DNA from: Amylostereum areolatum
Lineage: Eukaryota; Basidiomycota; Agaricomycetes; Russulales; Stereaceae
NCBI GenBank assembly: GCA_012932865.1
Contig: SAXG01000019.1
Coordinates: 186,001 to 250,000 of the forward strand
Length of the DNA: 64,000 nt
Direction: 5' to 3'
This document shows positions 40,022 to 50,464 of this stretch, piece after piece. Below the pieces are notes generated by a model. That model was not told where the DNA came from and did no database searches. It saw nothing but the letters and a program-made list of their open reading frames with translations. A program made the position numbers and the translations under genes. How positions within the stretch are numbered: position 1 is the first letter of the stretch; every line of letters begins with the position of its first letter.

Positions 40022-40031
40022 GGCAGCCGCG
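40022..40031 (+). repeat. Left copy of a 10-bp direct repeat (target-site duplication)
   Basis: GGCAGCCGCG occurs here and at 50455-50464 in the same orientation, immediately outside the matching ends of the KDZ element. Confidence 0.7.
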
Positions 40032-40059
40032 GGAGCGTAAAGATTTTGAACGGGGGCGC

Positions 40060-40230
40060 CATGTGGCGGCGTGGCGTGGCGGCGTGGCGGCATGGCGTGG
40101 CGCGTGTAAACTGAAACCGTGAAACTTAAGACAACCGCCATGGCGCCATGGCGCATCCTTTCTTTAAGTTTCTTTTCTTTTCTTTAAGTTTCTAAGGCAT
40201 CCAGCGCCATGGCGCCATGGCGGCGAGACC
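40060..40230 (+). repeat. Left subterminal palindrome array of the KDZ element
   Basis: A diverged block of GTGGCG units (40062-40102) is followed by two clusters of overlapping CGCCATGGCG palindromes (about 40136-40154 and 40204-40222, two palindromes each), separated by pyrimidine-rich tttctttaagttt repeats. The array is mirrored at 50258-50412. Such subterminal repeats are typical transposase-binding sites (inference), and every palindrome holds two CpGs. Confidence 0.85.
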
Positions 40231-40249
40231 TCGTGCGCAGTGCACCATA

Positions 40250-40262
40250 CAATATATATAGA
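40250..40262 (+). promoter_or_regulatory. TATA box for the zinc-finger gene, inside the element's left end
   Basis: A caatatatatagac motif lies about 35 nt upstream of the ATG at 40293, directly after the last palindrome cluster. The transposase gene at the other end has the mirror arrangement. Confidence 0.6.
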
Positions 40263-40292
40263 CTCACTCTGCACGTCGTTGTTCTCTCGTGA

Positions 40293-43089
40293 ATGCCCCC
40301 TCCCCCACAGGGTCCCTGCGACCTTTGTGGCGGCGTTGTCGACCCTTTCCTTACCGTCAACATCGGATCATCGACTCCGCAGAACCGTGGACGTATCCAG
40401 CGTCGGGTACGCCTTCTTATCGTCCGTTTACGCACTCCAGCCCGGCATGCTTATACGTCTGTGACCCTTCTGCTTCCAGTGTTCGGGTTCGGGCTGTCCC
40501 TTCACCATCTTCTATACTCCTCAAATTCAATCCGATAACCCTCAGGACGCTTTTCGTGAAGCAGAGGCAATAACAAAGCTCATCAACAGCGACCCGTCAT
40601 CTTCAACATTCTTTGCCTACTTTCCCCAACACGACACTACTACGTCCTCTCCCTCATCTACATTTTCTGGACCCCATTCGTCGTCTACACGACCTTCTGC
40701 GAAGCCATTCCAACGTCGTGTCTCTTATCACAGACGCACTGGTACGTGTATTCTTCATGATCACTATATTCTATCTAACCCTGAGTCATTGCTCTCGCTC
40801 ATAGTTTCTATGAGCGACCTCGATCCCTCACTCTGCGTTAACCGCCACAAGGGACTCTGCACTAGCAGGAGCAAGAAGTTTGCGAAGGACCTACAATGTC
40901 GCCATAATCGATGTAGCCCCTGCTGTATCAAAGATGCTCACGTTCTCGGGCCATGTGACGTGCCTAAGCACCGTCCCGCCAAAGTTGTTCGGGCTTTGAC
41001 TTCTTCTGATAATACTCCCTATCCGTCTTCGTCCACTGCTGCATCTTCCACCTCCGTTTCGAAGGCTACCTCAAGTTCATCGGCATCGGCGTCCAGAACG
41101 CTCGCTCATCCGGTCCAGAATACATGGACCCAGGTATCAGAAGGAGTCATTGCCGATCGGAAGCGTGTAGTCGGCGAACGTCAGGCTGAAACAGCGAGAA
41201 AGCGAGAGATTACGATCAAGGTTTGGCGTCAGGTGCGTGCGTTCCACAATACGGTTTGTGGGTGTACTAACTCTCCTCTCTAGGCAGGTGTTGGCCCCGA
41301 CACAATACAAGAGCCAGTTCCATTCTACCCTATATTCAAGCTCGACGATTCCAGCGCGTCAGGACTCCTCTTTCCACCCTCCTCTACACCGTCTATGCGC
41401 CTCTGTGCGCAGATCTTTGCTCCGGAGAAGCGTACATGGGTAATCACGGCGGCCGGGGCATCGAGAACGCTGTCTGGTGCAGAGACCGAACTCCTTATCC
41501 GTGCAATGCCGAACGGCATCGGCGGGCCTTACCTTCAGGATCAAGACTGCCTAGAGTTGCCCCCATACGCGCGTTCAAAGAAACGCGCGCATTCTCCCTC
41601 AGACCCATCTGAACAGCCACCTCTGAAGCGAGTCCCGTCTTCCCCAATCCCGTCTTCCCCTGTTCCAGCTTCTCCACCTCTTCCCTGTCGAAAAGGTAGC
41701 TTGCGACGCATCATGTCATCTCCTGGGCCTGTCAGAAGCGATGGTAGCGGCGGATCGACACTTCTCAGGGTGGACCCGCGTGCACGCGCCCCAGCGGACA
41801 CGGCCAGGTTGTCGGTGGTTGCGCGCCTAGGCATTCAGGATCTGGCACAAAACGACTGGCTCCCATCTATCCTTGAGTTTGAAGAGGTATGCGTGCTATG
41901 TCAGTTGATATCCCAGTATATGGTTTCTCACCCCTTTCTTTTGTGCCAGGGCGACACCGAGATCGACAATCCAGAAGTGAAGCCTCCCAGCCCAACGACA
42001 GCTTCGTGCGTGGACCATGCTATTTCGACAAATGACGCAGTGGAAGGCGCTGCGGTATTGCCTTCAGCGGCTGTGGCTACGACGCCCACACCCACTACGA
42101 TGCCCACACCCCCACCAACCATTCCGATCCACATCCCCTCCGATGCCCATCTCCAGGATACCCCTTCCGAATCCCCGTCGCCTATCGTAACATCTCGGCG
42201 TTTCAACTCTCGCTCCCGTTCGAGTTCCTCGACAACCCTCAAATTCCCTTCCGAGTTCTCCTTTTCCGCGATCTGGAAGGGCGTCGAGGAAGTCAATAAG
42301 GCAGTTGTGGTGGAGCCAAAGAAGGGAGGGCCGAGGGAGACCCAGTCTAGCGCGGTCCTCAGGGTTTTTGGCTTGAGGACGTGTGGGGCGTCGACCTTCC
42401 GATATGTTGTGCAGGTTCTCCACATGGGATCACCAGCGACCTGGAAGCGTTACCTTGCTTTGGGCTCGTCTACAGCGGCAGCATTTGGGAACTACCGACA
42501 CGAGGTACGCGGCGCATCCCCGGACGCAAAACTTCCCTGGGAGGATGGGGGGGTGGCACTTGACTCAGCAGGATCTCCGGCCTCATCGGCGTCGCCCTCC
42601 CCACCTCCCCAACTGTTTTATGAGGGCGCTGCTCTCCCCTCACCATCATCCTCCCTTTCTGGCACCACTTCAATGTCTTCTCCAGCCCTCCCATCCCAGA
42701 TAGAAGAGTCTTCCGGTATCTCGTCGCCTGCCAACGCGATTCTCTCAAATACTCGGAACGGCTCCCTTTCAGGTCCCGACACCTTCACCAACCTTGGAGG
42801 AGCGCACGGTGTAGCATTTGATTACGCCGCTACTCAATCTTTCGGCGATCTGTTCGCCCTTCTAGATGGCACAGCCATCGCCCCGTCGTCGATGGACGAT
42901 GCGGCTCTGTTTGCGGACGACATGGCTCCACGTACTAGTACAGACAATCTACTACATACACACACAGAAATCTCCACCTTTTCTCCCACAGGCGACTCCG
43001 TTCCAATCGAAGACTGGCAGCCATGGGATTATGGTGCTTTCATCCCTACTCCTAACACTCTCCAAGCCATTAACGAAGCTATCTCTTAA
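40293..43089 (+). CDS. GRF-like zinc-finger protein carried by the KDZ element
   Basis: Large protein with two Cys-rich modules. Exon 1 (40293-40406) and exon 2 (40480-40741) join as CDLCGG, then FLTVN, NRGR and CSGSGCPFTIF. This is the GRF zinc-finger layout: C-x2-C, a basic NxGR, then C-x4-C-x-F. Exon 3 (40805-41232) has a second cluster: CVNRHKGLC, LQCRHNRCSPCC and CDVPKH. After the intron 41233-41283 comes FYPIFKLDD and ARIFAPE-type sequence, then long Ser/Pro/Thr-rich regions. The tail is SVPIEDWQPWDYGAFIP, stop 43087-43089. An in-frame 63-nt intron is likely at 41889-41951. Likely a nucleic-acid-binding cargo protein; whether it helps transposition is unknown. Confidence 0.65.
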
Positions 43090-43929
43090 TCCATCCTGTC
43101 TTGACCTTAGATACTACATCCCCCCCCCGCGTATATTATGTATCTTAGTTGCACATAATTCTAGAGATCCATAATACAGAAGTTTTTCATACCCCACCAA
43201 CATGCACTTCACTTCCGAAGCATCTCGGCCGTCTCCATTTTTCTCTTGCTGTTGCCTCTTGCATCCAACACGGCCCTCTGCGTGGTGTCGTGCGATGCAC
43301 GCATCAACAAGAACTTTGCCATCGTGCGCGTTCGACTTCAGCTCGCAACAACGCACGCATCCGCTCCCTCAACGTACAGCAAGCAATGTGGAGGATGGGG
43401 AAATAAAAGCGGATAGTGGAGAACAAGAGGATAAAGGTCTGTGATCAGCCGCACTCCCCTCACACACTCACACTTTCCTCTACCTCCCGCGACGATTTCC
43501 TCCCGCCACAGACCACGACACAGACCTCTCGCAAGCACGAGACGGACGGCGCGCACGGGACGAGACGCGTTACAGCTCCCCGCAAAGTTGTCATCGCTGT
43601 CGGCATGCGCAGGGGCAACCGCCCACTCGTTGCAAGCCCCAGCATCCCCGCAAGCCGTACACGACGTTCCACACGTATGCGCGTGCATCGTATGACACGG
43701 CGTCAGGTGTCGCGATGGCGTGTGTTGGCCGTGAAGGTAGGCCATGGATTCTAGCAGAAGGTCAGCCGTCGACAGTTACAGAAGGAACGATGGCTGACCG
43801 CCTCTCTTTCCAACAGATTGCCCTGCCGTCCCCAAGTCCCTCCGCCATCGCCACTGCCTTCCATCCCCAGCCCACCTCTCCTCCATGTTTCTCAGTGGTT
43901 GTCGTCGCAGCACGACCGCTGCAGGGACC
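43090..43929. other. Spacer between convergent cargo genes
   Basis: Frames here are short and look like composition effects. It lies between the 3' ends of the zinc-finger and bHLH genes, so it should hold two terminators. A run of c at 43119-43128 follows the zinc-finger stop codon. Confidence 0.4.
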
Positions 43930-45013
43930 CTAGCGCCGTGGGCAGGAACCGGGGATACTGAATCGGGGGGATGCATACATCTCTGTGAAGCCCGCCTCGA
44001 GCAGCCTCCGCACGTCCGCGTCCTCCCAGAATACGAGCTTCTCCTTGGCCCTGCCCGGCTGCAGCTGCTTCAACACTGGCTGCGCCGTGTACCGCGCCCG
44101 CGGCGGCGGCGGGATGTACTCGGACATGGCCGCACGCTGCCCGGCGGTGTTGAGCATGAGCGCCTCGTTAACCCTGCGCCGCGGACAAAAGCATCAGTTA
44201 GGACGGGTGCAGAGAGAGGAGCCGAGAGCGGCGAGTGACTCACCCTTGAAGGCGCCGGGTCTCGTTCTCCGCGTTCTGAAGCCGTGTCTGCAGCTGCTGC
44301 TGCGTCATCTCGAGGTACTTGATGTCGCTCGTCGCTCGGTGGAGGAACGAGACCTTGCTCGATTTCTGGTTCGACACCGGGAGGACGTCCTTGAGACGGC
44401 GGTAACCGTCCCGAAGCTCGTCGCGCCTCCTTTGCTCCGACTCGATGCGCTGACGGCGGATCTCCTCGCAGCGACTAAGGGCCCTAGGGAACGGATTAGC
44501 AGAAAAGAGAAAAGGGAAGGATCAATGAAAAGATGTGTATGTACACCTTATTGGAGCCGCTGCTGGGGAAGCTGGGGATCGGCGCAAAATCGTCATTGTC
44601 GTCCGAAAAGTCCTCCTGCTTGGCCGCGCGCCGCTTGCGGGCCATGGCACTATGGGTGATGCGTGGGGAGATGGCGATGGGGTTGTAGCGGTGGGAGCGG
44701 GGAATGGCGGCAAGGGAGGGCGAGTGGGTTCCAGAGCCACGGCGGGTTCCGCCCAATTGCATGCTGCCCGAAGACATGTTGCCGGTGCTGAGGAGGTTGG
44801 GGCGGATGCCGCTGTTCATGGGAGTAGTGTGGGGGCGGGCGGAGCTGGTCGTGGTCGTGTACGAAGGACCGGAGAAGGTGTACTCGGTCATGGGGTTGAC
44901 GAGATTGAGCCCGGTGAAGCTGAGGTGGGGGGACAACACTAAAAGGAGAGGATGATGTCAGAGGCGGAGGGAATAAACAGAGATGGAAATAGGTACGTAC
45001 AGTGCATGGGCAT
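43930..45013 (-). CDS. bHLH transcription factor inside the KDZ element
   Basis: Starts MPMH at ATG 45013, splices to LLSPHLSFTGLNLVNP, and then an N-terminal Ser/Thr/Pro-rich region ending SSGSNK at about 44550. After an intron the domain follows: RRQRIESEQRRRDELRDGY is a classic basic region with the E-box-contacting Glu and paired Arg, then RRLKDVLPV (helix 1), a loop with NQKSSK, and VSFLHRATSDIKYLE (helix 2), running into coiled-coil QQQLQTRLQNAENETRRLQ. After another intron the end is QRAAMSEYIPPPPRARYTAQ, stopping at 43930-43932. It is a DNA-binding dimeric regulator (family knowledge). It is head-to-head with the TET/JBP gene, sharing about 400 bp of upstream sequence. A start further upstream cannot be excluded. 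Confidence 0.8.
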
Positions 45014-45431
45014 GATAGCGGTTGCGGCGCACGACAGCGACCACACGTCTGGGACCAAATGAGTACGGCCGCGCTCACGAATCGTGTGATGAGCGTGAGG
45101 CGGATACGTACTCCACGCGTCGCGGGCAGATGTATAAGTACGAGTACCAATGCACAGAATTTACGAAAGGTCTATTGAAGGTGATGATCAGCAATGCACT
45201 GGCTGCATGGATGACAAGGTAAGACATACCGGATAATTGTGAGGGACGGGGACGAGTACGACTACGAACATCTGTACGAAACGCGGATCCAACACCGAAG
45301 TGAGCGGCGCTGTCACAGCTGAGCTTGCGATCACGCGGCGGCTGTCAAAAACAGGTCAGCATATATATAAAAGGATGGTGAAAAAAATCGAACGTTGCTT
45401 ACCTACCAACCTCCCCCAACGGTACGTCGCA
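45014..45431. promoter_or_regulatory. Shared divergent promoter of the bHLH and TET/JBP genes
   Basis: A strong TATA (catatatataaaagg) at about 45358-45373 points rightwards towards the TET/JBP gene. The leftward bHLH gene starts at 45013. Co-regulation is an inference from the arrangement. Confidence 0.5.
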
Positions 45432-47731
45432 ATGAGCCTTGCACCCCGTTCCAACCTACCGTACGTCCCATCGAGGCCGCTCTACCCCCCGACGAGTGCA
45501 GGCGCTGCACACAGCGTAACTCTCGTCGAGAGCGGCCTCGAAGCGCGCCCGTAGCGGTCATCGGCAGCGTCGGCGTTGCGTTTGCAGGTAGCAAACCCGT
45601 CGAGCTGTACGCGGACGCACGGGCTGAGGTCGTGCAGTGCTCGACCCCGCTGCTGCTATGTGCTCCAGACGGGGTCGCTGCGAGCCGACTGCGACGCGCA
45701 ACGGGACGCGCCTTGGACGCGTCTTGGACGCGACGCGTCCGAGCGCGTCGACGGTTTCCCACGTTCTCCCCCCCTTCGCTCCGTTCCTCACGAGTCACCG
45801 GCCTCACCCTCACCCTCACCCTCACCCTCTCCAGACGACCCCCCCTCAACACCTGGCACGGTATAATGGCGCGGACCCCTGTGCGTAAAATCTTACCGCT
45901 GCTCGTAGCCAAACTCATACCCCTCGCAGCTTCGTCGCTCGGAGCGTTTGCGCCGACATAGCTCTCCGCTCTCGCCTCCTCCGTCTCCGCCACCGCCTCC
46001 ACCACAAGCACGAACGCCGCCACGCGGCTCACCCTTCCAATCGCATGCAAAACCGTGCAGCCCGCACACAGACGCGTTCCCGGACCTGCGACGTCTCTTC
46101 CCAGGAGACCGCGACGTCTTCGATGTCGTGGATATCGAAATCGACATCATGGATCTCTACCAGGCTGCTGTTGCGCGCGAAGTCGACGAACCGGACTCGG
46201 ACTTGGAGGAGGCTGAGGAGGACGAGGACGAAGAGCAGGCTGAGGCCGGCAGAAGTAGAATTGCTGGGGAGCGGGATAGGTGCGTCGCCTCCGTGCTGGT
46301 CACTGACAGCGCTGACGCTTCGTCTATTACAGCTCACCCTCTCCTTCAGTACAGTCCCGGACCCCTCTCGATGGGTTCGCCTTCAGGCAAATAGGACAAC
46401 ACGTGCATCGGCCTGCGGCGGCCGGCAGTTCATCCAGCACCCAGCTCACCAAGGCAGAGCGTCGCAAACGAGCGCAGGAGCGTGCGCGGGCAAATACAGC
46501 CATTCTGAAATTCAAAATGCGACCGCACGTCATCCACAAGTACACGAAGATCATGCAATTCAAGTGCACCATTGCCGCTCGCGACCTACCTCATACGAAA
46601 ACCGCATGGTTGGGACGTGAGGCTCTCCCCGATGGCGCCCCCGCAAGCCTTCGAAAGATACGCTGGGATGGACGGTGGGTCTCTCCCTCCTCTAGCATGC
46701 CTCAGCTCACAAGTATGCACGTATGCAGTAAGCCGCTCGTCTTGTCGATAGAAACGGCTACATCATGTGTGCCATGCACGGCCGCCCCGACGATCCAACC
46801 TGGGACGAGGCGTGTGGCCGCGTCTGTCTCAAGCTGGTCGACCTTGGGCAACGTTTCTACTTCAATGAGACCGACTCGAAGCATCGGCGTGGTGAGTACC
46901 CGTGCTTCCATGCCGGGGTATCCTACGGAGGTGGACAAAAGGTTTGGCTGATTAGTTTTGAACATCACCTGCTGCTTCTAACCGTACCGACAGGGCCCGA
47001 TGAACCGCAAGCAAGCCAGCAAGGGCAAGCAGACCGAGGTTGATCGCCTTCTCGCGGACAACGACGTTATACGCCTAGCTGGCCACGGGAGCGGTACGTA
47101 TGCATTGCCCCCCGACCTACATATACTTATGTGCACAATTATAGCGTCTTTTGCCACGACGGCCCCGAAGCTATTCAAGAAATTTGACGATACCCTTAAC
47201 GCGCTATGCGAGCGCGACTCGAAGCTGAAACGTCCATACCCGAACTCGGTATGGGCAGCAACGACATTCAACCTCGGAGGGCAAGTCATTACCACCCCGC
47301 ACACCGACCACCGCAACCTTGCCAGCGGATGGTGCTCGATTACGGCGCTCGGGAACTTCGACCCTCAAGCGGGCGGCCACCTTGTCCTGCATTCACTTGG
47401 TTTGATTATAGAGTTCCCCCCAAACTCGGAGTGTTGCATACTCTCAGCATGCATCGTTCACTCGAACACACCGGTCCAGCCTGGCGAGGTTCGGTGCTCT
47501 ATCACCCAGTACAGTGCAGGGGGTTTGTTCCGGTGGGTGGCCAGCGGATTTCGGAAGCTGGGCGATCTGGCGGTGCATGACCCTCAGCGGAAGGTGGAAA
47601 TGGAGGCGGCAGATCCCACGCGGTGGGATACCCATATCTTGTTGCTCTCGAAGGTGAAGGATCTCGCGGCAGATGTTTCTAACGTGTTCGGTGTGGAGAT
47701 GGAGGTTGATGATGGCTCAGGCAGTGTGTAG
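45432..47731 (+). CDS. TET/JBP-family Fe(II)/2-oxoglutarate dioxygenase
   Basis: Family enzymes oxidise 5-methylcytosine in DNA. The catalytic region is clear: HRRGEYPCFHAGVSYGGGQ (46890-46940), then after an intron VIRLAGHGS, then FNLGGQ, the Fe-ligand pair H-x-D in TPHTDHRN (His 47300-47302, Asp 47306-47308), the conserved ASGWCSITALGNFDPQAGG, LVLHSLGLIIEFPP, the distal His in IVHSNTPV (47459-47461), and the 2-oxoglutarate-binding Arg in GEVRCSITQY (47492-47494), ending GGLFRWVASGF. Upstream exons carry an acidic stretch (46190-46250) and a basic segment KAERRKRAQERAR, perhaps for DNA binding. Introns near 46280, 46675, 46940 and 47094 were placed by eye. The first exons are uncertain; ATG 45432 or 45375 follows the TATA box. 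Convergent with the transposase 3' end. Confidence 0.85.
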
Positions 47732-47941
47732 GGCACGCCATAATAGATTATGGAGTCAGACGCGTACGGAGTGAACAGCATGTACGAAGATCGACCGAGA
47801 CGCGTCGAACGACGAACTGTGACTCGCAACTCGCGTACCAATTTCTTACACACAAACCACACGCGGCGATCAAGAGCGAGGTTAATAGCAGCCAACACAT
47901 GAGTTTAAATAGCATAGTTATAAATGTGCATGTAATGGATA

Positions 47942-50145
47942 TTAAGACAGTAAGTAGTCCCTAGACAGATGAAACGGATGGGCGCCGGTTTTGCGAAGAT
48001 CGTCCATGATCATACGGTTGCGCAACTTCACCATCTCGTCCAAGAAGTAATCATATCGCACCTCCCTCATCTCCCTCACAATCGCCTGATATCCAACAAA
48101 CCACGAGTTCGTCATCTCCGCGGCTGACGAGTTGAATCGCCAACGACCATGCACCACGAGGTCTGGGAACAGCGCCGGGTTACAGTGCTGTCCACAGAAA
48201 TCGTCGGAGTCTTTATGCTTCGTCTTCATGTGAAACACGTCAACCGGTAAAGCGCAATTGGAGAAGTGAGTGTCACCTTCCGCAATGATATGCTTCTGCA
48301 GGCTGCAGGCGTTGTCGTAGAAGATGACTTGTGGGAGGGAATTTTTCGTGGGGAAAAGACCGTGCAGGAACTCCTGCACTAAGTGTGAGGCAATGAACAG
48401 AACGACACCGAAAGAATTTACTCACTCGAGCGCCGTTAATCGCCTCCGACCCAAAAAAAGTCGCGCGGCCCAGCATTACACCACACGTCGCAACACACAG
48501 CTGCTCGTTGTGAGTGCGACGCCGCCCAAACCGTGCCCGCAACTTCACGTTCCCTGCATCCGACTTGTCCGGGCATCCCATCCCTTCTTCCACCTCTAGC
48601 AGCTCCTCCGTTTCGCCCTCGCCAGTTTCTTCTGCCCGCAACAACTTCTGGCGTTCAAGGCGGCGTCGCAGTTGAAATAGCGCGGACTGGTCCTTCGTGT
48701 CCTCCAAGCGGCGGTGGGATGCGTCAGAGCAAGTGCGGAAACCCACACCAGCGTCTGCATCACATCCATCAACGACGCAAAGCTTGTCCTTGTACGAGTG
48801 CTCGTCACAGAATCTTGCTCGCTGGGAAGGTAGCTTGCCCTGGCAATCATGCACATTGCAGCACGGCCGACCGACTGTAACGCCGTCCATAACAACGGCG
48901 CGCATTACACCTAGTAGGGGAAGGTCAGACAGGATCCAAACACAAGTGTCGAATGGGACGTACTGGGCTCATCGAGTTCACCCTTGACTTCTATGGCGCA
49001 GCATCGATCACACGCATGATTCCAGCACTCCTGGCCTTGTCCTGCCATGAGATTGTTCCGTGCGTTGAGGGCTTCCTCAAGACGCTTTGACTGATCACCG
49101 ACATTGGATAGGCGAAGCTGATCGCCGCGCTCCTTGTGGTCTCTGATCAAAGCGAGAAGGAAAAACGCGTCCCAGACGATGGTGACGGTCATCGACGGAG
49201 AGACAGACCAAGCAGCTGGGAAGCGGACTCGTGCTTCGCCGTGTTCCAAGTCGTATATGCGTCCGTTATTGCTCGCGGAAACCCTAATCTGATGGTCAGT
49301 TTAAGGTTCATATCAAGGTCGACTCGAAAGACTCACCAGGCGCAAACCATCGAGTTCGTGAATCGCATGCAGAGGGAGGTCTCGACAAAAATATGTTTGG
49401 TGACATGAATGGTCGATGGTGAACCCGGATAGTATGTGCGCTTCCGGTTGGAGGCGTGACCGTGGACGTAATAAGTTGGATAATAGTGTGTCCCACAATC
49501 TGGTACAGACAACTTATTAGCCCTGAGCGGAAGGTTTACAAGGTAAATAAGGCATACTTCGGCACGTTGCCGAGAAAGATAGCACGGGGACGGGACCGTA
49601 TTCTCTGGTAAAATGGACGACGCGGATGAACTCGATCTTGGAGAGATCGCGGGGTATCTGTGCTTGGCCAGGTCCTGGTGCCGTGCACAGGGGGTTGAAG
49701 CAAACCCGTGTCGGAGGGTAAAGGTCGCCAAAGCCTTACGAGACTACGTCAGTAAATTACGGTTAGAAAAAAAAGTCAAATATTAGCACTCACCAATATC
49801 GAAGGGCAGTCCGTGGTGCATGAAAACGTCCAGAAGATCTCCCGCTCGATACCTCCCTTGCAAAGAGCCGTCCGCAGTAGTCATCGACCATGCAAGGTCT
49901 TGGTAAATGGCCCAAAGATCGGTGACGACGGAAGGGTCGAGATGTAAGGCAGACGCTAAGAAGCCGACGACGTTGGAGGGTAAGCGGTGAGGAGGGCCGG
50001 AGTAGGAGGAGGCGCAGTGCCAGGAAAGGCGTTCCTTCAGCTGCGCGATAAGTCGAAAAAAGAGAAGAAGAGCATCAACCGAAACGGTCTCAGCAAGGCC
50101 GTCAGAGTGGACAAGCAGAGGAGAAATAAGAGTAGAAAGCGACAT
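47942..50145 (-). CDS. KDZ-superfamily transposase with CxC6-type Cys cluster
   Basis: Starts at ATG 50145 (MSLSTLISPLLVHSDG). Then YPPTRVCFNPLC and VHFTREYGPVP, then C-x2-C and HYYPTYYVHGHAS, VETSLCMRFTNSMV, and CWNHACDRCC. After that comes a dense Cys/His cluster (GRPCCNVHDC, RARFCDEHSY, CVVDGCDADAG, FRTCSDASHRRLE), the CxC cluster that accompanies KDZ transposases. The core follows: QVIFYDNACSLQKHI, LPVDVFHMKTKHKDSDDFC, WRFNSSAAEMTNSWFVGYQ and REMREVRYDYFLDEMVKLR. The D of FYDNAC and E of SAAEMTN are probable catalytic acids of the RNase-H-like fold (inference). Introns begin near 49791, 49526, 49333 and 48422; splices such as GAR to EFLHGLF keep frame. Stop 47942-47944. Apparently full length and undamaged. 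Confidence 0.9.
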
Positions 50146-50164
50146 AATCTATGGAGGTGGATGG

Positions 50165-50205
50165 GAGATGGGCGGGGGCGGGGGCGGGGGCGGGGGCGGG
50201 GGAAC
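50165..50205. repeat. (GGGGGC)n tract in the transposase 5' region
   Basis: Five or more consecutive gggggc units on the plus strand, between the transposase TATA box (gtgtatataagtc on the minus strand, about 50236-50248) and its ATG. The plus strand could form a G-quadruplex; the transcript would be C-rich here. Confidence 0.7.
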
Positions 50206-50257
50206 TTAGATTCAAGTCGGGGCTTTGCGCACACGACTTATATACACAGGACCCGCC

Positions 50258-50412
50258 ACAGCGCCATGGCGCCATGGCGCGAAAGTCTCTTCAAAGACTC
50301 TGGAATGCTTGACGTGGCGACCGCCATGGCGCCACGGGAAGTTAACTGAGAACTAGCTTCAACGCGCCGCCATGGCGCCATGGCGCCACGCCTCAGTGCC
50401 ACGGCGCCACGC
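50258..50412 (-). repeat. Right subterminal palindrome array of the KDZ element
   Basis: Three clusters of CGCCATGGCG palindromes (about 50260-50281, 50321-50334 and 50367-50390), with five palindromes in total, are followed outwards by CCACGGCGCCACGCCAC. The order and rough spacing mirror the left array at 40060-40230. Confidence 0.85.
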
Positions 50413-50454
50413 CACAACGCTATGTAGCGCGTCCGTTCAAATGTTTAACTTTCT

Positions 50455-50464
50455 GGCAGCCGCG
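50455..50464 (+). repeat. Right copy of the 10-bp direct repeat
   Basis: GGCAGCCGCG, identical to 40022-40031; see the element entry. Confidence 0.7.

What the first reader, a model, noticed from the sequence alone, without database searches (positions are those of the whole stretch)
40032..50454. Complete KDZ transposon with TET/JBP oxygenase and two regulatory cargo genes
Seen: a CxC6-KDZ transposase and a TET/JBP dioxygenase, both with all key motifs, lie between matching ends. Known: mushrooms carry KDZ elements linked to TET/JBP genes. New here: the element can be delimited, appears intact, and also holds a bHLH factor and a GRF-like zinc-finger protein. Four genes in opposing pairs suggest a self-regulating element that edits its own DNA methylation while encoding its own transcription factor.
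Basis: partly seen in the sequence, partly recalled or inferred. Interest (0 to 1): 0.92.

Follow-up and report, generated by a model that had tools for sequence, protein, structure and literature searches.

The report
Fungal transposon with swapped TET cassette
A complete 10.4-kb DNA transposon in a wood-decay fungus (likely Amylostereum) carries genes for a likely transposase, a predicted TET-type DNA dioxygenase and an uncharacterised zinc-finger-like protein; its fourth gene is a fused fragment of two host genes and is probably not the self-made regulator first proposed, so the element matters as an example of gene capture and likely TET exchange.

Summary
Four spliced models are intact: GRF-like (+), bHLH (-), TET (+), CxC5/CxC6 transposase (-). 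The TET protein models onto fungal CcTET.

The interpretation changes. The GRF-like and transposase genes form a conserved inward-facing pair that delimits seven diverged elements (perfect 8-bp duplications) without a match to this TET or bHLH. TET looks like an exchanged cassette: in a sister element only the TET gene differs strongly (55-80% against 89-98% around it). The bHLH gene is a capture: a truncated host bHLH gene fused to a host REV1 fragment, missing as one 1,042-bp block from the sister element, with dN/dS of 0.6-1.0, changes at near-invariant residues, and broken in four of ten copies.

A self-encoded transcription factor is unsupported; anti-silencing by TET is plausible but untested. 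New variant of a known kind (TET+ fungal DNA transposons); it fails the published TET+ Kyakuja signature and the Pfam KDZ model.

The parts
40023..40030 (.). left copy of the 8-bp target-site duplication GCAGCCGC
   Evidence: single copy at the empty site C154
40031..50455 (.). complete transposon, 10,425 bp, termini GGGAGCG...CTTTCTG, imperfect 24-bp terminal inverted repeats
40057..40222 (.). left subterminal repeat array of CATGGCG/CGCCATG; with the right array it holds all 20 occurrences in the element
40293..43089 (+). GRF-like gene, 848 aa, 5 exons (40293-40406, 40480-40741, 40805-41232, 41284-41886, 41950-43089); N-terminal CxxC...NRGR...CxxxxCPFTIFY motif
   Evidence: model; motif conserved in the 5 rows aligned; dN 0.395, dS 2.27 against C112 over 445 codons
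43930..45013 (-). chimeric bHLH-REV1 gene, 296 aa, 4 exons (45013-45001, 44938-44545, 44483-44244, 44173-43930)
43980..45021 (.). captured block (1,042 bp), absent from the sister element C110, which has six other bases there
44121..45014 (-). stretch 92.6% identical (introns included) to the host bHLH gene on C116
43977..44122 (-). stretch 84% identical to the 3' part of the host REV1 gene on C45
45866..47731 (+). TET/JBP dioxygenase gene, 527 aa, 6 exons (45866-45880, 45930-46279, 46333-46674, 46752-46941, 46994-47093, 47145-47731)
45771..47720 (.). TET cassette that differs in sister C110: bins 55-80% identical against 89-98% in the bins on either side
47942..50145 (-). CxC5/CxC6 transposase gene, 642 aa, 6 exons (50145-49794, 49734-49558, 49499-49337, 49283-48964, 48910-48426, 48373-47942)
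50262..50385 (.). right subterminal repeat array of CATGGCG/CGCCATG
50456..50463 (.). right copy of the 8-bp target-site duplication

Best explanation
Window 40,031-50,455 is a complete DNA transposon with 8-bp target-site duplications, in which a CxC5/CxC6 protein, the likely transposase, and a GRF-like protein form a conserved pair, while the TET and bHLH genes between them are probably later, exchangeable arrivals. Step by step. (1) Shown: ends, duplication, copies and empty site. (2) Inferred: the CxC5/CxC6 protein binds the subterminal repeats and cuts and joins at the GGG..CTG ends. (3) Inferred: the GRF-like protein, kept together with the transposase in diverged elements, is an accessory DNA- or RNA-binding factor. 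(4) Fold and triad shown by prediction and alignment, activity inferred: the TET protein oxidises methylated bases on element copies and so counters silencing. (5) Shown: a sister element differs strongly in the TET gene alone; inferred: the gene was exchanged. (6) Shown by sequence: the bHLH gene is a host bHLH fragment joined to a REV1 fragment, present as one block; inferred: it was inserted recently and is a drifting passenger, not a required regulator.
Against: The transposase does not match the Pfam KDZ model and profile alignment to three KDZ sequences is not significant (P 0.066), so transposase activity rests on CxC5/CxC6, motifs and mobility. No catalytic activity of the TET was tested and its Pfam score is below cut-off. 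Three of 8 copies lack a duplication. Three of the 13 GRF-like places (C119, C110:163 kb, C149) have no listed transposase match, though only 69 of 137 transposase candidates were scored. The bHLH DNA-binding exon differs less from the host (6 of 240) than the N-terminal exon (30 of 379) or introns (14 of 193), which could hint at some constraint, although 5 of the 6 differences change the amino acid. YN00 gives dN/dS 0.63, not 1, and 224 codons have little power. In six copies the bHLH frame is open. Absence of the block in C110 could in principle be a clean loss.
Confidence: 0.78

Rival explanations
1. The captured bHLH is a working, fast-evolving regulator that the element uses (or that acts against the host bHLH protein), so the element does encode its own transcription factor.
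For: Open frame and matching length in 6 of 10 copies; Pfam HLH match, and Max as nearest solved relative by sequence; fewer changes in the bHLH exon than in introns; dN/dS near 1 would also fit a switch of role.
Against: Split by an insertion at the same place in C50, C27, C166 and C56, with two stops in C56 as well; these four have different right flanks, so the broken version is itself multi-copy; five changes at near-invariant residues; lost first exon and REV1 tail; no E-box enrichment at the ends; absent from the sister element and without a match in the diverged ones.
Confidence: 0.15
2. TET was not exchanged; it simply evolves much faster than the rest of the element in the C110 lineage.
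For: C94 and C110 TETs are each other's best match in this genome, 76% identical over 452 codons, the next at 48-49%.
Against: The excess is in silent change (dS 1.59 against 0.26 for the transposase and 0.035 for a 78-codon GRF fragment), with edges near the gene's ends; dN/dS of about 0.09 is constraint, not fast protein change.
Confidence: 0.15
3. The element is moved by the many PF18758 KDZ transposases of this genome, and the CxC5/CxC6 protein is an accessory protein.
For: 155 PF18758 matches in the genome, none of those listed at the element; in Pleurotus CxC5/CxC6 frames were reported away from KDZ transposases (passages of PMC7641404).
Against: DDE-like motifs (DGV, YDxxC, AAE) kept in 8 of 9 paralogues, constraint, and termini that vary between the CxC5/CxC6 families.
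Confidence: 0.12
4. A host locus or segmental duplication rather than a transposon.
For: Three of 8 copies lack a duplication.
Against: Different flanks, 8-bp duplications in 5 of 8 copies and an empty site.
Confidence: 0.01

Closest known systems
TET+ Kyakuja and TET+ Zisupton DNA transposons of Agaricomycetes (Kojima 2025, PMC12730594; main text read, supplements not)
   Same: Delimited fungal DNA transposon that encodes a transposase and a TET/JBP dioxygenase; Zisupton is described with 8-bp duplications
   Different: Kyakuja (the only TET+ type reported there for Russulales) has 7-bp duplications, CA..TG ends and no inverted repeats; this element has 8-bp duplications, GGG..CTG ends and imperfect inverted repeats. 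The main text holds no mention of bHLH, GRF or zinc finger, and I saw no exchange of TET alone between sister elements described for Agaricomycetes.
CxC5/CxC6 insert family of Pleurotus ostreatus (PMC7641404; passages read)
   Same: Multi-copy elements with a 660-739 aa CxC5/CxC6 protein
   Different: 6.8-kb insert, read there as linked to a Copia retrotransposon; no TET or second gene described in the passages I saw
KDZ1 of Cryptococcus (PMC12810828; passages read)
   Same: About 11 kb, 8-bp duplications, KDZ-type with a cysteine cluster
   Different: 241-bp inverted repeats, CxC1 cluster; no TET cargo described in the passages I saw
Gene-capturing Pack-TYPE DNA transposons (PMC8903248; search listing and start of abstract only)
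   Same: Capture and shuffling of host coding DNA
   Different: Described there as non-autonomous plant elements; here the captured block lies inside an element with its own likely transposase
CcTET of Coprinopsis cinerea (8jkk, 7vpn)
   Different: About 15% sequence identity

Membership tests
KDZ transposons (Kyakuja-Dileera-Zisupton) | Match to the Pfam KDZ catalytic model PF18758 | tested here: not met
   No match at E<=1 for the spliced protein; none of the listed own-genome PF18758 matches lies at the element (the list was cut)
KDZ transposons (Kyakuja-Dileera-Zisupton) | D..D..E catalytic motifs with a YD..C and FH...H core (pattern recalled) | tested here: inconclusive
   Motifs present in 8 of 9 paralogues; profile comparison to three KDZ sequences aligns the YD..C and FH parts but P 0.066
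KDZ transposons (Kyakuja-Dileera-Zisupton) | KDZ-associated cysteine clusters CxC5/CxC6 | tested here: met
   CxC5 8.2e-35, CxC6 2.4e-24
KDZ transposons (Kyakuja-Dileera-Zisupton) | 8-bp target-site duplication (Zisupton, Dileera) | tested here: met
   Perfect in 5 of 8 copies and 7 of 8 diverged elements
TET+ Kyakuja (Kojima 2025) | 7-bp duplication | tested here: not met
   8 bp
TET+ Kyakuja (Kojima 2025) | 5'-CA..TG-3' ends without inverted repeats | tested here: not met
   GGG..CTG ends, 15 of 24 terminal positions inverted-repeat
TET+ Zisupton (Kojima 2025) | Transposase within the Zisupton clade | not tested
   No named Zisupton sequence was at hand for a tree
TET/JBP dioxygenases | TET/JBP fold | tested here: met
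TET/JBP dioxygenases | HxD...H iron triad and downstream arginine | tested here: met
   H162 24/25, D164 24/25, H215 23/25, R226 24/25
TET/JBP dioxygenases | Pfam Tet_JBP above cut-off | tested here: not met
   15.0 bits against 34.9; 9 of 25 aligned proteins match at E<=0.1
TET/JBP dioxygenases | Oxidation of 5mC | not testable with these tools
   -
PE-type TET (Kojima 2025) | HxE in place of HxD | tested here: not met
   HTD in the window's protein; D in 24 of 25
AG-type TET (Kojima 2025) | Residue equivalent to CcTET Asp337 | tested here: inconclusive
   No residue-level alignment to CcTET was obtained (searches gave none); by gap-free counting the position would be C, not D
GRF zinc fingers | Pfam zf-GRF match | tested here: not met
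   No Pfam match; no significant PDB relative; the resemblance is a recalled motif
Basidiomycete bHLH family of the host (P0002 and orthologues) | HLH domain and collinear gene with shared introns | tested here: met
   HLH 2.8e-9; 92.6% DNA identity through three introns

The most novel reading that the evidence does not exclude
This is a distinct lineage of modular DNA transposons: a fixed mobilisation pair (CxC5/CxC6 transposase plus a GRF-like protein) holds the ends, and the interior is a slot into which epigenetic or regulatory cassettes are exchanged. TET is one such cassette, moved between elements as a single gene, and the bHLH-REV1 fusion is a new cassette caught at birth.
Probability: 0.4. 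Interest if true: 0.75.

Novelty: new variant of a known kind. Interest (0 to 1): 0.6.

Why it matters
TET-bearing transposons of fungi are thought to counter DNA methylation, but how they gain and change TET genes is open. Here one genome holds near-identical intact copies, an empty site, a sister element with a different TET in the same slot, and diverged elements without a match to this TET. That makes the claim testable by comparing methylation and copy number between members of one lineage. It also shows a DNA transposon that holds a fusion of two host genes (a bHLH factor and REV1) in many copies, and it warns against reading each gene inside an element as a working part.

Tried and rejected
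Considered and rejected. (a) Element as a host locus: rejected by the empty site. (b) C106 and C120 as TET-transposase half elements: the contigs end inside the element. (c) bHLH acting on E-boxes in the element's ends: CANNTG 2 in the terminal 600 bp against 2.0 expected, CACGTG none. (d) Filing as TET+ Kyakuja: duplication length and ends do not fit. (e) Showing KDZ kinship by profile comparison: P 0.066. (f) CcTET residue alignment through PDB sequence searches: no TET chain found by sequence, so the Asp337 question stays open. (g) Homologues of the GRF-like protein: one hit only, the A. chailletii copy; only the 7,977 candidates sharing most words were scored and the protein is low-complexity, so this is no evidence of absence. 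(h) Named genes in the interior of C112: no Pfam match above cut-off in the 9 frames scanned. (i) Papers: no paper in the held library holds TET, transposon, basic helix-loop-helix, basidiomycet and KDZ together, nor TET, transposon and Amylostereum; the 2014 PNAS paper that named KDZ is not held, so what it says of accessory genes is unknown to me. (j) The name 'GRF' and the motif patterns for GRF and KDZ are recalled.

Dropped rows: blastn pieces of 60 bp or less, or of 150 bits or less, were left out of the copy table. C15 and C139 copies or fragments of the family were seen only as search hits, not fetched; of C106 and C120 only the contig-end pieces were fetched.
Full report
What is there. 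The window lies in contig C94 (186,001-250,000) of a 57.1-Mb, 182-contig assembly. The first and last kilobase recur across the genome. I fetched nine other copies and aligned them with the window's copy. C180, C161, C122, C34 and C100 are full length at 99.9%; C50 and C27 are full length with two insertions; C166 lacks about the first 185 bp; C56 lacks the left third. With the window's copy that makes six near-identical full-length copies and four related ones. Reading the junctions gives an element of 40,031-50,455, and a perfect 8-bp duplication in 5 of the 8 copies compared; C122, C27 and C50 have none. The left flank of C27 and the right flank of C166 share ACTATTAG, so those two may be halves exchanged between copies, by recombination or misassembly (inference).

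Empty site. A query made of the two window flanks joined over one copy of the duplication matches C154:213173-213978 at 95% over positions 1-810, straight across the junction at about 501; the rest of the flank follows after about 6.3 kb of other DNA. The fetched C154 stretch reads across the site with GCAGCCGC at the junction and no element. The assembly therefore seems to hold parts of both haplotypes (inference).

Genes. I built spliced models by hand; all introns are GT-AG and none of the four proteins has an internal stop. Order and strands: GRF-like (+), bHLH (-), TET (+), transposase (-). Pfam finds CxC5 and CxC6 in the transposase, HLH in the bHLH protein, Tet_JBP below its cut-off in the TET protein, and nothing in the GRF-like protein. 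The GRF-like, TET and transposase frames are open in 9, 10 and 10 of the 10 copies; C56 lacks the GRF-like gene. C180's transposase carries 17 amino-acid differences from the window copy, which I did not resolve.

Organism. The best database matches to the bHLH, GRF-like and TET genes are Amylostereum chailletii proteins at 97-99% identity, all three listed with a longest contig of 29,042 nt, presumably one contig. The host bHLH gene of this genome matches A. chailletii protein P0002 at 96-100% in its four pieces. The window is thus very likely from A. chailletii or a close relative (inference).

The core pair. Searching the genome with the GRF-like protein gave 13 places outside this family, some of them single weak exon matches. 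Ten of the 13 have a CxC5/CxC6 transposase match on the same contig in the same inward-facing layout, about 7-20 kb away. C119, C110:163 kb and C149 have none listed, but only 69 of 137 transposase candidates were scored. I fetched both ends of eight of the ten. Seven have a perfect 8-bp duplication next to termini GGGARCG (GGGAACA in C66) on the left and CTTTCTG, GTTCTG or TTTCAC on the right: C112, C126, C172, C101, C152, C113 and C66; in C150 the left terminus is there but the right was not found in the 670 bp fetched. The terminal repeats of this element and six of the seven (C101 was not scored) match at 15-18 of 24 positions. From those coordinates the seven are about 10.9-18.4 kb long. 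No match to this TET or bHLH is listed within them, and in C112, which I fetched whole, tblastn with the TET and bHLH proteins finds nothing at E 1e-3. C112's interior holds other frames without Pfam matches above cut-off. The GRF-like N-terminus keeps CxxC...TVN.G.ST..NRGRIQR.CS.S.CPFTIFYT in the five rows aligned. Between C94 and C112 the GRF-like gene shows dN 0.395 against dS 2.27, and the transposase dN 0.215 with dS not estimable. I read both genes as under constraint.

Subterminal repeats. All 20 CATGGCG/CGCCATG occurrences in the element lie in its two terminal 300-bp stretches; the commonest terminal words differ in C112, C113, C152 and C172. I infer family-specific transposase binding sites.

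TET exchange. C110 holds a sister element. In the stretch compared (45,021-49,070) it is 89-98% identical to the window copy in 150-bp bins outside TET, but from 45,771 to 47,720 it drops to 55-80%; the TET gene is 45,866-47,731. Silent divergence of TET is 1.59 against 0.26 for the transposase and 0.035 for a 78-codon GRF fragment (C110's transposase includes a shifted stretch). I read this as replacement of the TET gene by a related one.

The bHLH gene is a capture. Window 44,121-45,014 is 92.6% identical, introns included, to a host bHLH gene on C116, a conserved basidiomycete family (858 database proteins at E<=0.001, 120 listed). The first exon with the conserved MEGPLE start is missing but for its last few codons. 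Window 43,977-44,122 is 84% identical to a C45 gene whose 428-aa frame matches REV1_C at 6.4e-23. The two pieces meet at 44,121/44,122. C110 runs across from 43,979 to 45,022 with six other bases between, so the block 43,980-45,021 was inserted, or less likely lost cleanly. C179 holds a related arrangement: the bHLH 5' part at 87-89% and a longer REV1 piece at 79-88% in three parts. A. chailletii protein P0003 has the same AAMS/EYIP junction with a full start, so the fusion may predate its capture (inference).

Is the bHLH gene kept? Against the host gene there are 26 amino-acid-changing and 7 silent codon differences in 224 codons; dN/dS is 1.03 by NG86 and 0.63 by YN00. Exons differ by 36 of 671 bases, introns by 14 of 193. 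In the bHLH exon 6 of 240 bases differ, five of them changing residues (sequences). In 31 orthologues that I fetched, of the 858, four of those five sites carry the host residue in 31 of 31 and the fifth in 30 of 31. In C50, C27, C166 and C56 the long exon 2 is split by an insertion that in C50 looks like a solo LTR; C56 also has two stops. The A. chailletii database copy P0001 has other changes in and near the basic region. Together this favours a drifting passenger; a new role is not excluded.

What is known. Kojima (PMC12730594; main text read) reports complete TET-bearing transposons in 11 lineages, with Kyakuja the only TET+ type in Russulales, making 7-bp duplications with CA..TG ends, and Zisupton making 8 bp. 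That text has no mention of bHLH, GRF or zinc finger. In passages of PMC7641404, Pleurotus CxC5/CxC6 frames are described apart from KDZ transposases. In passages of PMC12810828, Cryptococcus KDZ1 is an 11-kb element with 8-bp duplications. The KDZ-naming paper of 2014 is not held. So the element works like a TET-bearing KDZ transposon and shares CxC5/CxC6 and the 8-bp duplication, but it misses the Pfam KDZ model and the Kyakuja signature; I file it as a new variant, not as a Kyakuja.

Limits. All DNA comparisons are within one genome. Copy counts are lower bounds. Four of 18 TET places outside this family lie within 10 kb of a listed PF18758 match (list cut), so the source of this TET is open.

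Noticed in passing
C50, C27, C166 copies, at window-equivalent 43,329-43,341 and 44,853-44,860: Two shared insertions of about 480 and 540 bp; in C50 they have TG..CA-like ends and short duplications, probably solo LTRs. The second, also at the same place in C56, splits the bHLH gene.
   Followed up: partly
C27 left flank and C166 right flank: They share ACTATTAG, as if one insertion had been split between two contigs.
   Followed up: partly
L053 / C154:206,888-213,172: The empty-site contig carries about 6.3 kb of other DNA some 310 bp beyond the site, with an 8-bp overlap of the flanking matches, perhaps another element with an 8-bp duplication.
   Followed up: no
L034 (C179:94,501-98,500): A second bHLH-REV1 arrangement with a longer REV1 piece and no match to most of the bHLH domain.
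   Followed up: partly
L029-L030 (C112, between GRF-like and transposase genes): About 8 kb of interior with long frames and no Pfam match above cut-off in the 9 frames scanned.
   Followed up: partly
whole genome G000: 155 matches to the Pfam KDZ model, and 18 TET-like places outside this family, 4 of them within 10 kb of a listed KDZ match.
   Followed up: partly
C113 and C150; C101 and C172: Diverged elements with near-identical match scores on different contigs, perhaps alleles of two haplotypes or recent copies.
   Followed up: no
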